Shown: piece after piece, positions 48,401 through 57,400 of the stretch | Numbering within the stretch: the first letter of the stretch is position 1 | Layout: each line of letters opens with the position of its first letter | DNA from: Haliotis asinina | Taxonomy: Eukaryota; Mollusca; Gastropoda; Lepetellida; Haliotidae | Reading direction: 5' to 3' | Assembly (NCBI RefSeq): GCF_037392515.1 | Contig: NC_090281.1 | Location: forward strand, 46,848,645-46,912,644 | DNA length: 64,000 nucleotides | Program-made: the position numbers and the translations under genes | The notes under the pieces: generated by a model | What the model saw: only the letters and a program-made list of their open reading frames with translations | What the model was told of the DNA's origin: nothing | Database searches by the model: none

Positions 48401-51400
48401 ATAAATCAATTTGATTTGTTTATGGCATATAGCCTGATAGGTCAATGATTAAGTCTCTGTATTGCATGCTGTTCTTAGCAGATGGGCAGGGAGACATATA
48501 GGTGTCAATAAACCAGACAATGAGCTTTCCCTGTGACAGAGGCTGCTTGCCCCAATGAACAAGTTTATTTTTATGTAATGTGTAGATTGTTTACTTGTTT
48601 GTGTGCACAAACAAGATTAGGCTACTGCTCACAACCTTATACTCTGAGCATGTATACTGTTTCAAGCTCCGCGAACCTATGTGCATGTGTTATGGGTGAA
48701 GCGCAGCATAGCTGTTGAAAACACTTTTTCCCCCAGCGTTGGGGGAAATTGAGTGAATCATTTGAACTTGGGTTTTTTTTCAACTTTCTAGGTTGAATTG
48801 GCATTTTTGATGATTTGTAAGTGCATACCGAAAGGTATCAGAAGCTGCAAAATACGCACGTTCCATGTGGACTTTAAATGATCATCTACATTGTAATTAT
48901 CCATCATTGACGGTGTATATGTTAGAGAAAACACTTCTCCTTGGTTTTGGTAGACAGTGTAAAACCATCGGGGTTGGGAAATCCCTACCCCTCTGGTTTT
49001 ACAATGTCTACCCAAACCGAGGAGAAGTGTTTTCCTCTGTACCTAACATTCGCTTTCATTTGGAAGTTTTGATTCCAGTGAAATAGTTCCTGGCATTCAG
49101 TCACAGACTGTTCTGTTAGTAATGGTTAAGTGTCACGAATGAAAGATGTTAATCACATCATTTGGACATCCAGGGATTGGAAGTGGCTTTCAGATATTTT
49201 GTCATCCCTGTCTGCATTCAGCCCCCTCTTCCTGTTTCAGGGAGTCGTCCGAGCCGCTGCCATCCATTTCCCCGGCTGGGTTCCAGTTCCTGCTGCTTGA
49301 TACTGGCTCCCAGGTGTGGTACTTCATGCTGCAGTACTTGGAGTCCGTGGAGGTTAGTGTTGCTGTGGTTACTGTACCAGGTGTGTAACTTCATGCTGCA
49401 GTTCCTGGAGTCAGTGGAGGTTAGTGTTGCTGTGGTTACAGTACCAGGTGTGGTACTTCATGTTGCAGTTCCTGGAGTCAGTGGAGGTTAGTGTTGCTGT
49501 GGTTACAGTACCAGGTGTGGTACTTCATGTTGCAGTTCCTGGAGTCCGTGGAGGTTATTTTTGTCATGGTTACTGTACCAGGTGTGGTACTTCATGCTAC
49601 AGTAGACCCGTGAAGGTCCCGGGGTAGAATAGGCCTTCAGCAACCCATGCTTGCCATAAAAGGCGACTCAGCTTGTCGTAAGAGGCAACTAACGGGATCG
49701 GGTGGTCAGGCTCGCTGACTTGGTTGACATGTGTCATCAGTTCCCAATTGCGTAGATCGATGCTCATGTTGTTGATCACTGGATTGTCTGGTCCAGACTC
49801 GATTATTTACAGACCGCCGCCATATAGCTGTAATATTGCTGAGTGCGGCGTAAAACTAAACTAACTCACTCACTCACTCATGCTTCAGTACCTGGAGTCT
49901 GTGGAGGTCAGTATTGCCATGGTTACTGTACCAGATGTGGTACTTCATGCTGCAGTACTTGGAGTCCGTGGAGGTTAGTGTTGCTGTGGTTACTGTACCA
50001 GGTGTGGTACTTCATGCTGCAGTTTCTGGAGTCCGTGGAGGTTAGTGTTGCTGTGGTTACTGTACCAGGTGTGGTATTTCATGCTGCAGTTCCTGGAGTC
50101 CGTGGAGTTTAGTTTTGTCATGGTTACTGTACCAGGAGTGGTACTTCATGCTGCAGTACCTGCAGTCCGTGTAGGTTAGTATTGCCATGGTTACTGTACT
50201 AGGTGTGGTACTTCATGCTGCAGTTCCTGGAGTCCGTGTAGGTTAGTATTGCCATGGTTACTGTACCAGGTGTGGTACTTCATGCTGCAGTTTCTGGAAT
50301 CCGTGGAGGTTAGTTTTGCCATGGTTACTGTACCAGGAGTGGTACTTCATGCTGCAGTTCCTGGAGTCCATGTAGGTTAGTGTTGCTGTGGTTACTGTAC
50401 CAGGTGTGGTACTTCATGCTGCAGTTCCTGGAGTCCGTGGAGGTTAGTGTTGCTGTGGTCACTGTACCAGATGTGGTACTTCATGCTGCAGTTCCTGGAG
50501 TCTGTGGAGGTTAGTTTTGCCATGGTTACTGTACCAGGAGTGGTACTTCATGCTGCAGTTCCTGGAGTCCGTGTAGGTTAGTGTTGCTGTGGTTACTGTA
50601 CCAGGTGTGGTACTTCATGCTGCAGTACCTGGAGTCCGTGTAGGTTAGTGTTGCTGTGGTTACTGTACCAGATGTGGTACTTCATGCTGCAGTTCCTGGA
50701 GTCTGTGGAGGTTAGTTTTGCCATGGTTACTGTACCAGGAGTGGTACTTCATGCTGCAGTTCCTGGAGTCCGTGTAGGTTAGTGTTGCTGTGGTTACTGT
50801 ACCAGGTGTGGTACTTCATGCTGCAGTACCTGGAGTCCGTGTAGGTTAGTGTTGCTGTGGTTACTGTACCAGATGTGGTACTTCATGCTGCAGTTCCTGG
50901 AGTCTGTGGAGGTTAGTTTTGCCATGGTTACTGTACCAGGAGTGGTACTTCATGCTGCAGTTCCTGGAGTCCGTGTAGGTTAGTGTTGCTGTGGTTACTG
51001 TACCAGGTGTGGTACTTCATGCTGCAGTTCCTGGAGTCCGTGGAGGTTAGTGTTGCTGTGGTCACTGTACCAGGTGTGGTACTTCATGCTGCAGTACCTG
51101 CAGTCCGTGGAGGTCAGTATTGCCATGGTTACTGTACCAGGTGTGTAACTTCATGCTGCAGTACCTTTAGTTCATGGAGGTTAGTGTTGCTGTGGTTACA
51201 GTACCAGGTGTGGTACTTCAATTGCCAGTATCTCGAGTCTGTGGAGATAAGAAATGCTGTGGTTACTGTCCCAAGTATGGCCGTTCATGCTGCAGGACCT
51301 CATGTCCGAGGAAGTATGTGTTGCCATGGTTACTATCCCAGGCGTGTTTCTTCATGTGGCAGTACTTGAGTCTGTGGAGGTACGTGTTGCTTTGGTTACT

Positions 51401-54400: not shown

Positions 54401-57400
54401 CAACTGTCAAACCGCTCTTTCACTCACGACATTCTAGTCTTCATGCTTTTATCATTCCAGACTCTCCTCTACAGACTGCATTGTTGGCATTATTCTGTCA
54501 AATGTTATACAGGTAGGTTCTGTCAAATGTTATACAGGTAGGTTCTGCCAAATGTCATACAACTTAGTTGTTTTAAGTGTCATATAGACAGCTACATTCT
54601 AATGGCATACAAGTAAGTTCCATCAACTGTCTTACAGGTAAGTTCCATCAAATGTCATACAGACAGCTAGCTGCACTTTAATGTCATACAGGTAAGTTCC
54701 ATCAATTGTCATATGAGTAAGTTTCATCAAATGTCATACAGACATGTTCACTTTAATGTCATAAATGTCATACAGACTGGTACACTCTAATGTTGTACAG
54801 GTTAGTCAACGTCAAATGATGCAATGTTTTTCAAGGATGTTTATGTTTAAGGACTCTAGATGTCACCCTTTCTGTTGACAGATTCCCCAATATGGCTGTA
54901 GCCAACTTGTCCCGAGATAGCGTCAGAGCAGCTCTGATGAGGGGAATAACTGCTGAGCAGGTAAATGCTTCACATGTGAAGCCTTCAGTCTCTCTAATAC
55001 CTGACACTGTTATGTAATTGAGTGAAAAGTCGTGTCTGGAATATCGGTCACATTAAATATTTAAGATTTACAACTGCCATGCTCCTTTAAATATGGTGTG
55101 ATTACCAACCAAAAGAGAGATATCCTTAAAATAGTTGCTATGTCATGTGCAGTCTGCTGTGTCAGGAAAATCTCACTACCATCACTACTTTCATTTTGGT
55201 AGCAGACTACAAAGAGAGTTGATCATCTGGTCACAAATCCTCTCTTTTGCATTTATTTCTAATTTTCAGCAAACTACTTGTTTTTTATAATGCGAACCAA
55301 AATACCTTTCAAGGATTTGACTCTGTAAATAGTTAAAAACTTCGGTATCATGCATAAAACCCTCCCTGATCCTCAAGCAAGGCAGTGGGCCAGTCTAGTG
55401 GTAAAACTGTTTGCCGTCAAGCTGAAAACCCACATGGGTAGAATGTGTGAGGCCCATTTCTAGTGTCTCCTGCCATGATATTGCTGGAACAAAATTAAAC
55501 TCACTCTTCCTCAAGCCATCTCATCAGTTTGACATTCTGTGAGTGCCATATGACAAGCCAGTGTGATACAGGTGCAGTGAGGCTTTCTCTGGTCTAAAGC
55601 AACATTCACTCTATCTCACAGTCTGGTAGTAACAGTACTGCATGTATTTGTTTTCACAGATAATCAACTTCCTACGCAGCCATGCCCATCCGGAGATGAT
55701 GAAGACAGTAAGTAAAACCACAGCCTTAGTTGTCAAAGGAAATTGACTGAGAGATCCCATGTTTTAAACTGAAATTCCAGGAAATGATAATACCATTGTT
55801 GTTTGCATTGAAATGATTAACAATCAGCGCCTTTTCAGAGGACCAAGCCACAAGTATTTCCCCCCGACAGTGTTATTACAGGATTGTTTATCCAACAGAC
55901 CCCCTTGATCATCTTGTGTTGCTGTACAGTTGTCTCCCCTGCGATGACCATATGTTATAGGAATGTTTCCCCCCACAGACCCCTGTGATCCCCCTAACTG
56001 TGTGCGACCAGGTTCGACTCTGGGAGCTGGAGAGAGACCGCTTCAAGTTTTCAGATGGCGTCATGTACAACCAATTCCTGTCTCAGAATGACTTTGAGCT
56101 TCTCAGAGACTATGCACAAGTGAGTTATCTCCCAGTGGTTAACTGACTTAAATATTTGTGCTTTACTTGGCTCAGCGCCTTCTGAGAAGTGTATGTGCCT
56201 GTATATGCCAGATTTGCTGTAAACACTTTCTCTTTATATATTTGATTTAGTATTCACAATTTAGAGATAAAAAGAAATGGAAGATGACCATTTTTGACAG
56301 GACTAAACCACATAACACTGATGATTATATGCAGAAGGCTTACTGACCCTCACAATCAAATGTTTTTGAATTTCTCAGAATTTGACTTTTGGGAACACAC
56401 AAACCAGGAAGCAGTATAAGGTTTTGAAGCACTGATTATCTATCAGAATTGTTGTTGTACAAAAAAGTCATTTTGAATTTCCTGCCGATGTATAATACAA
56501 GCTGAGTGCAATAAAGCCTGTTTGATTCATCTCAATGAGCAGGGGATAGCAAAGTGGTTCTAGTGTTCAACTCCTCACTCTTAATTGCGTCAGTAATCTA
56601 AGAGATGAATATTATCTTTCCATATCCCTAGTCATGCTTATTTGTGTGTCTTTGCTTCTGTTCGAAGTTCCAGTGGAAACTTGAAATCCCTTGAAGTTCC
56701 CTTCTTCAAAAGAGGAGGTAAAATCATATTCACCCATGAGTACCCTCCCTTTCCTCCATATTTTTGTGCCAATATTGGTCACCTGATCAGCCATATTTGT
56801 TACTCTCTCCTTCATCGCCCAATAGGAAGGTTGTGTGGGTGACTTGGACTCTCTATACAACACTTTTCTCTTGTTTATTTCATTTTTTAATCCAAATATT
56901 GCTGTATATGGTTTTCGGTCTGTAGTTTTAATTGCATGATGTGAAAATTTTGTGTAGAAATTACGTATATTATACATGTTTGCAGCTTGTAATCATGATT
57001 AGTACTTTGTTTACTTGTTGATGAAAACTTGTTTAAGTTGTACATAGCATCCGATCCATACCGATTATGTCCATGTTGCACGACAGTCTACTTCTGATGT
57101 CCGCTGTGATCTTTGTTGACATTTACCATTTGAAGAATTTAGTCAATATTTATTTGCTGTTTAGACATGCAAGGGAGAAGGTAAGACAGTATCCATCAGT
57201 CATGTAGGGCAAGGAGAATGATTGCGCTAAGGACCGTGCATTGATGGCTAGAGCTGATTTTTGTATGCAGCACCAGCTACTGCTACTGCAACTGCTATGC
57301 AACATAAATTAACAGATGATTACCTTTGGTGCAGACATCTTCGACGAAGGATGGCAGCCCTGCCAATACAGCACACCTGCAGTGTATGTCAGAAGAGGCA

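What the first reader, a model, noticed from the sequence alone, without database searches (positions are those of the whole stretch)
49241..54830. Three independent tandem arrays seeded on splice donors of one gene
In GTF2H4 the donors of exons 6, 9 and 10 are each followed, with no gap, by a tandem array whose unit contains the last 42, 10 or 19 nt of the exon, the GT donor and the first 25, 32 or 6 nt of the intron. The three units (67, 42, ~25 bp) are unrelated in sequence. Chance placement of minisatellites would not give exact register with the donor three times in 13 introns. A local process acting at exon-intron junctions, for example one linked to transcription or R-loops with TFIIH itself as the product, would be new. 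This is my best candidate for an undescribed phenomenon here.
Basis: partly seen in the sequence, partly recalled or inferred. Interest (0 to 1): 0.9.

Follow-up and report, generated by a model that had tools for sequence, protein, structure and literature searches.

The report
Repeat arrays copying three splice donors
Three introns of one animal gene are filled by repeats that began as small tandem duplications across the end of an exon, leaving dozens of copied splice sites; the pattern is real, but known kinds of process explain it.

Summary
The gene is GTF2H4 (p52 of TFIIH; 14 exons, 455-aa open protein matching human p52). Tandem arrays of 67, 42 and 25 bp begin inside exons 6, 9 and 10, about 43, 10 and 20 nt before the donor, so each unit carries exon tail, donor and intron start. 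None of the gene's 10 other donors and 13 acceptors, nor five DNase II donors, is duplicated. Of 70 intronic copies, 60 keep the GT.

'Exact register' follows from any founder duplication that crosses a junction, and the offsets differ. Uniform placement gives P(3 or more) of about 0.0003-0.0025: unusual, but picked from a scan. Array-free remainders of these introns are only 61, 172 and 74 nt; given the host introns, 2.4-3.3 donor-spanning arrays of 6 are expected. Copied donors show no clear extra conservation, and array 1 expanded in its interior.

Best reading: splice-tolerated tandem duplications followed by ordinary minisatellite expansion, with precedents (IFI6, OCT1, UBC). No junction-targeted mechanism is needed. 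What stays interesting is how splicing picks the first of many equal donors.

The parts
49241..49352 (+). GTF2H4 exon 6; last 42-43 nt are the exon part of the 67-bp unit
49310..51550 (+). 67-bp array: exon 6 tail plus 97% of intron 6; 29 registers, 26 with GT at the donor position (authentic one included)
49605..49877 (+). SINE-like element inserted into the 67-bp array, flanked by a 12-of-13 nt direct repeat (49592-49604 and 49878-49890) that looks like a target-site duplication; related copies elsewhere in the window
   Evidence: blastn of 49604-49880: 11 further hits in the window; flanks, compared by eye
50461..51028 (+). Exact 201-bp (3 x 67) higher-order repeat inside the array: recent expansion more than 1 kb from the donor
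   Evidence: 367 nt of exact period-201 identity; copy table
52725..52857 (+). GTF2H4 exon 9; last 10 nt are the exon part of the 42-bp unit
52848..54288 (+). 42-bp array: exon 9 tail plus 89% of intron 9; 32 registers, 30 with GT
54461..54512 (+). GTF2H4 exon 10; last 19-20 nt are the exon part of the 25-bp unit
54493..54807 (+). 25-bp array: exon 10 tail plus 80% of intron 10; 12 registers, 7 with GT; copies 1 and 2 identical, the rest diverged
45462..45607 (+). 57-bp array inside intron 2, not touching the donor (control)
46516..46876 (+). 93-bp array filling 83% of intron 4, starting 22 nt after the donor (control)
47343..47423 (+). 33-bp array inside intron 5 (control)
42431..60520 (+). 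GTF2H4 coding region, 14 exons, 13 introns

Best explanation
Three independent, ordinary tandem duplications of 67, 42 and 25 bp happened to cross exon-intron junctions of GTF2H4. They were tolerated because the 5'-most donor and the coding sequence before it stayed intact; use of any later donor adds a premature stop, so such transcripts are expected to be lost to nonsense-mediated decay. From then on every copy after the first was intron, free to expand, homogenise and decay as an ordinary minisatellite, while coding and splicing selection held copy 1. Arrays can grow at the donor end of a short intron but not into the branch-point and acceptor region, so in short introns they abut the donor. 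Shown here: gene model, founder direction (exon copy is ancestral), copy structure, donor retention, stop codons, interior expansion of array 1, short array-free remainders. Inferred: order of events, preferred use of the first donor, decay of misspliced transcripts.
For: Exon tails align to human p52 without gaps, so the intron copies derive from the exon. Array edges lie about 43, 10 and 20 nt upstream of the donor, with no fixed phase. Conservation of the GT columns among intronic copies (27, 30 and 11 copies; copy 1 and two ill-placed registers left out): half of all dinucleotide columns are at least as conserved in array 1, 24% in array 2, 92% in array 3. The exact 201-bp higher-order repeat and the identical copies of array 1 are interior. 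A SINE-like element landed in the already expanded array. Using a later donor brings a stop within 36, 32 or 4 nt. Collapsed lengths of introns 6, 9 and 10 are 85, 204 and 79 nt, ranks 2, 4 and 1 of 13 (p = 0.007); given the host introns, 2.4-3.3 of 6 arrays should span the donor and P(3 or more) = 0.44-0.92 for protected 3' zones of 20-60 nt. Precedent for the first step: the common human OCT1 8-bp donor duplication leaves both donors usable, and aberrant mRNA is only 0.3-0.6% in liver by deep sequencing (at most 2.1% by pyrosequencing) (PMC8137991, abstract and passages). An abalone intron is known to carry a length-variable minisatellite (PMC6905558, passages).
Against: Without conditioning on the host introns, three of six arrays on donors is still unlikely (P 0.0005-0.0025; 0.00025 if only the four arrays with more than three copies are counted), and why short introns were hit repeatedly is not explained. 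In the conditional model the chance that just introns 6, 9 and 10 all span is 0.09-0.28, and intron 4 should span with 0.63-0.86 but does not. The three donor-spanning arrays are also the three with most copies (29, 32 and 12 registers against 2.5-3.9 by TRF), which simple neutrality does not predict. The OCT1 duplication was not free of cost: it came with reduced OCT1 expression, median protein down 35% in homozygotes. No RNA data, no second individual or species, and no genome-wide count were available.
Confidence: 0.75

Rival explanations
1. A local mutational process tied to splice donors or to transcription (R-loops, U1-bound nascent RNA, TFIIH-related repair) seeds and drives the arrays.
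For: Three of 6 arrays in the gene span a donor, against 0.2-0.3 expected under uniform placement, and these three have the most copies. In array 1 adjacent-copy identity falls away from the donor (Spearman -0.39, p 0.04).
Against: No significant polarity in arrays 2 and 3; the slope in array 1 vanishes when its degenerate far end is left out (0.04 to 0.21, p 0.37-0.85); identical copies of array 1 are interior; GC skew in one array only; variable edge-donor distance; 0 of 10 other donors and 0 of 5 DNase II donors affected; association with short collapsed introns, which a donor hotspot does not predict.
Confidence: 0.07
2. The arrays are kept because they work: spare donors, isoforms as in human IFI6, dual-specific AG|GT sites as in UBC, recursive splicing, or U1 binding along the intron.
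For: 60 of 70 intronic copies keep GT, and 39 of 70 pair with the 5' end of U1 at least as well as their authentic donor (duplexfold with a recalled U1 9-mer). AGGT is present in 56 of 73 registers, authentic ones included.
Against: Donor columns show no clear extra conservation. Later donors add stops at once. Pyrimidine content before the array AGs (means 0.54, 0.63, 0.59) lies below most authentic acceptors (0.53-0.93). Five of 11 intronic copies of array 3 have lost the GT.
Confidence: 0.1
3. The introns themselves were born by tandem duplication of AGGT-containing exon segments (tandem genomic duplication).
For: All three junctions are AG|GT, and tandem duplication of AGGT is an accepted route of intron gain (PMC3443670, passages).
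Against: The acceptors of introns 6, 9 and 10 lie 61, 172 and 74 nt beyond the arrays and do not resemble the unit's AG|GT (by eye).
Confidence: 0.03
4. Assembly artefact: collapsed or falsely repeated sequence.
For: Copy number of long arrays is easily misassembled (general knowledge); part of array 1 is an exact 201-bp repeat.
Against: Copies differ by substitutions throughout (mean pairwise identity 0.84, 0.86, 0.67), one array carries a SINE-like insertion with flanking direct repeat, and the flanking exons are intact.
Confidence: 0.03

Closest known systems
Human IFI6 (6-16, G1P3) minisatellite with multiple splice donors (Turri et al. 1995)
   Same: A minisatellite repeats a splice donor, so that several units offer one. 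Known here from the title cited in PMC4526556 and PMC2572611 and one sentence of PMC4526556; the paper itself is not held, and that its array starts at the exon's donor is recalled.
   Different: IFI6 uses two downstream units as donors to make three mRNA species. Here later donors give stops, and three separate arrays lie in one gene.
Human OCT1 (SLC22A1) 8-bp duplication of the exon 7 donor, rs35854239 (PMC8137991)
   Same: A single tandem duplication copies the donor, both sites can be used, and the frameshifted product is rare in liver.
   Different: One extra copy, polymorphic in people; here tens of copies.
UBC polyubiquitin and other introns in tandem repeats with dual-specific splice sites (PMC10809524)
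   Same: AG|GT sites repeated in tandem; repeat expansion proposed to be tolerated because it can be spliced out.
   Different: There both splice sites lie in the array and intron length is a multiple of the unit; here the acceptors lie outside the arrays.
Internal tandem repeats at exon-intron boundaries of human segmental-duplication genes (PMC2812944)
   Same: Minisatellite expansion at exon-intron boundaries altering gene structure (abstract and passages).
   Different: There new introns or alternative splicing are reported; here the coding sequence appears unchanged.
Abalone TSSK1-like intron 3 minisatellite (PMC6905558)
   Same: Length-variable intronic minisatellite in Haliotis (27-bp unit, passages).
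   Different: No statement seen that it spans a donor.

Membership tests
Donor-spanning minisatellite (IFI6 type) | Array overlaps the exon end and repeats the donor in its units | tested here: met
   26 of 29, 30 of 32 and 7 of 12 registers keep GT
Donor-spanning minisatellite (IFI6 type) | Downstream repeat donors are used in mRNA | not testable with these tools
   no RNA data; use would add stops within 36, 32 or 4 nt
Dual-specific splice-site array (UBC type) | Donor and acceptor both inside the array, intron length a multiple of the unit | tested here: not met
   acceptors lie 61, 172 and 74 nt outside the arrays
Dual-specific splice-site array (UBC type) | AGGT in the unit | tested here: met
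   25 of 29, 26 of 32 and 5 of 12 registers
Intron gain by tandem genomic duplication | Acceptor is a copy of the duplicated AGGT segment | tested here: not met
   intron ends are unlike the unit, by eye; divergence beyond recognition is not excluded
Intron gain by tandem genomic duplication | Intron absent in relatives | not testable with these tools
   no animal genome held
Ordinary intronic minisatellite | Diverged tandem copies; in array 1 also internal higher-order expansion | tested here: met
   (no long exact higher-order repeat found in array 2 at the seven periods tried)
Ordinary intronic minisatellite | Position independent of splice sites | tested here: inconclusive
   P about 0.0003-0.0025 under uniform placement, 0.44-0.92 given host introns

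The most novel reading that the evidence does not exclude
Splice donors are preferred birthplaces or engines of minisatellites in this lineage: a process linked to transcription or U1 binding repeatedly duplicates the exon-intron junction, and the repeated donors promote further expansion, since the donor-spanning arrays are the largest in the gene.
Probability: 0.06. Interest if true: 0.75.

Novelty: new member of a known kind. Interest (0 to 1): 0.35.

Why it matters
If ordinary, the locus is still a useful natural experiment: three introns of a TFIIH gene hold 60 GT-bearing copies of their donors, 39 of them pairing with U1 at least as well as the real one by a simple duplex model, yet a normal protein needs the first donor each time. 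It shows how a duplication across a junction can be hidden by splicing and then grow, one route by which introns lengthen. If a genome-wide excess were found, it would point to a mutational process at splice donors.

Tried and rejected
R-loop or G-skew drive: coding-strand GC skew is 0.23 in array 1 but 0.08 and -0.03 in arrays 2 and 3. Polarity from the donor: significant only in array 1 (p 0.04), and gone once the degenerate far end is left out. Selection on repeated donors: no clear signal. Intron birth from the array: acceptors do not match. Shared origin of arrays 2 and 3 through TTATACAGGTA: the exon part of the 11-mer lies in conserved codons of both exons, so coincidence is preferred; not tested further. 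Acceptor-spanning arrays as a mirror case: none of 13.

Paper searches: 1 paper; 7; 31, 25 listed; 475, 15 listed; 7; 6; 32, 15 listed; gave the OCT1 case; 0. Of most listed papers only titles and abstract openings were seen. The C. elegans minisatellite and splicing paper (PMC4039745, passages) concerns intronic motifs and was not used further; PMC8724738 (passages) did not settle which of several equal donors is used.

Not possible: other Haliotis genomes, RNA-seq, genome-wide counts, reads. Turri 1995 and a U1 paper (PMC3413131) are not held.
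Full report
What was checked. The window belongs to no held genome, so the test is confined to these 64 kb, solved-structure sequences, family libraries and papers. Fourteen exons with GT-AG introns give a 455-residue open protein that matches human TFIIH p52 (GTF2H4) over residues 7-455 with E 3.7e-188. Exons 6, 9 and 10 end at 49352, 52857 and 54512.

The arrays. Copies were placed in register with the donor by repeated consensus scans at 62% identity or more. 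Array 1 (67 bp) has 29 registers, one truncated by an inserted SINE-like element. Array 2 (42 bp) has 32, one of them 4 nt out of phase, and array 3 (25 bp) has 12. The exon part is 42-43, 10 and 19-20 nt. The longest exact matches across the junction to a downstream copy are 71, 57 and 30 nt. The junction 30-mers recur at 30, 27 and 29 matches of 30. The 10 other donors reach only 16-19, the 13 acceptors 17-20, and five donors of a DNase II gene on the minus strand 16-18. Since the exon tails align without gaps to human p52, the exon copy is the founder and the intron copies derive from it.

Are three of them more than chance? I count six arrays with units of 25-93 bp in the gene from the TRF tables; overlapping rows were merged, and rows inside the SINE or inside a larger array and arrays of shorter units were left out. 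Under uniform placement of the founder, 0.19-0.32 of 6 should span a donor and P(3 or more) is 0.0005-0.0025. Adding four short-unit arrays gives 0.0015; keeping only the four arrays with more than three copies gives 0.00025. Counting acceptors as equally striking gives 0.005-0.007. A density model with 21 array loci of period 12 or more in the window gives 0.0002-0.001 per gene of 13 donors. If a genome held 5,000-20,000 genes of this size (an assumption, not a count), the rates tried (0.115-0.32 per gene) would yield about 1 to 86 such genes. How many windows the first stage read is unknown to me, so I call this a mild oddity that chance can still produce.

Where the arrays lie. With arrays collapsed to one copy, introns 6, 9 and 10 measure 85, 204 and 79 nt, ranks 2, 4 and 1 of 13 (one-sided p 0.007); rank 3 is intron 4. 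In such introns an array that must leave the acceptor region intact can hardly avoid the donor. Given the host introns, 2.4-3.3 of 6 arrays should span the donor and P(3 or more) is 0.44-0.92 for protected zones of 20-60 nt; that just introns 6, 9 and 10 all span has 0.09-0.28. The same model expects the array of intron 4 to span with 0.63-0.86, and it does not: it fills 83% of its intron from 22 nt past the donor. This reasoning moves the oddity from 'why donors' to 'why short introns', and does not remove it.

Signs of mechanism. 'Exact register' is a consequence of any founder duplication that crosses the junction; the edge-to-donor distances are unequal. In array 1 the identical copies are interior, with an exact 201-bp higher-order repeat at 50461-51028, and the far end is degenerate. 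Adjacent-copy identity falls with distance from the donor in array 1 (Spearman -0.39, p 0.04) but not once the far end is left out, and not significantly in arrays 2 and 3. In array 3 only copies 1 and 2 are identical, which would fit growth at the donor. Conservation of the GT columns is average in array 1, mildly high in array 2 and low in array 3 (27, 30 and 11 copies, with copy 1 of each array and one ill-placed register each of arrays 1 and 2 left out). So no common process acting from the donor outwards is visible, nor clear selection on the copied donors.

Consequence for splicing. Sixty of 70 intronic copies keep GT, and 39 of 70 (12 of 28, 24 of 31, 3 of 11) pair with the 5' end of U1 at least as well as the authentic donor by a simple duplex model. 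Extending exon 6, 9 or 10 past its donor meets a stop after 36, 32 or 4 nt, so a full protein requires the first donor. Which donor is used cannot be tested here. In the human OCT1 donor duplication both sites are used in minigenes (38-52% aberrant), but aberrant mRNA in liver is 0.3-0.6% by deep sequencing and at most 2.1% by pyrosequencing, with decay proposed as the reason; OCT1 expression was reduced (PMC8137991, abstract and passages). That supports tolerance of the founding step, at some cost.

Known relatives. A human minisatellite giving several donors (IFI6) is in print since 1995; I saw only its citation and one summarising sentence. UBC-type dual-specific sites (PMC10809524, abstract and passages) differ because both splice sites lie in the array. 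Repeats at exon-intron boundaries of human genes are described in PMC2812944 (abstract and passages), and tandem duplication as a source of introns in PMC3443670 (passages). An intronic minisatellite with variable length is known in abalone (PMC6905558, passages). I did not see three separate donor-spanning arrays in one gene in the listings of the searches made, which cover open-licence papers only.

Verdict. A real, neat case of a known kind. The junction-process idea stays possible at low probability. The facts that speak for it are the low unconditional P and the observation that the donor-spanning arrays are the three largest of the gene (29, 32 and 12 registers against 2.5-3.9 copies by TRF).

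Noticed in passing
2397-5027 and 13438-16277: Large inverted repeat whose collinear arm pieces are 94-99% complementary, containing 178-bp tandem repeats and flanking frames with reverse transcriptase (9858-12149) and RNase H (12153-13040) domains: looks like a young, roughly 14-kb composite or foldback-type mobile element.
   Followed up: partly
49605-49877, also 3853-4076, 14371-14631, 62806-62980 and others: A SINE-like family with 11 further blastn hits in the window, some short; one copy is nested in the 67-bp array with a 12-of-13 nt flanking direct repeat.
   Followed up: partly
about 31051-35920, minus strand: A DNase II gene: three of the frames tried match Pfam DNase_II (E 7e-21, 5e-12, 1e-14); other exon ends were read by eye and upstream exons were not traced.
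   Followed up: partly
39870-39915, minus strand: Rfam histone 3' UTR stem-loop (35.2 bits against 34 gathering); whether a histone gene lies next to it was not searched.
   Followed up: no
59086-59394: Reverse-transcriptase fragment (Pfam RVT_1, 30.5 bits against 29.6) in the 4.3-kb last intron of GTF2H4: probably a retroelement insertion.
   Followed up: partly
46516-46876: 93-bp array fills 83% of intron 4, from 22 nt after the donor to 52 nt before the acceptor, as if limited by the splice signals.
   Followed up: partly
52848-54288: In the 42-bp unit the intron part ends in CCTAG just before the exon part GCTTATACAG, so each unit resembles a 10-nt microexon between an AG and a GT; probably coincidence.
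   Followed up: no
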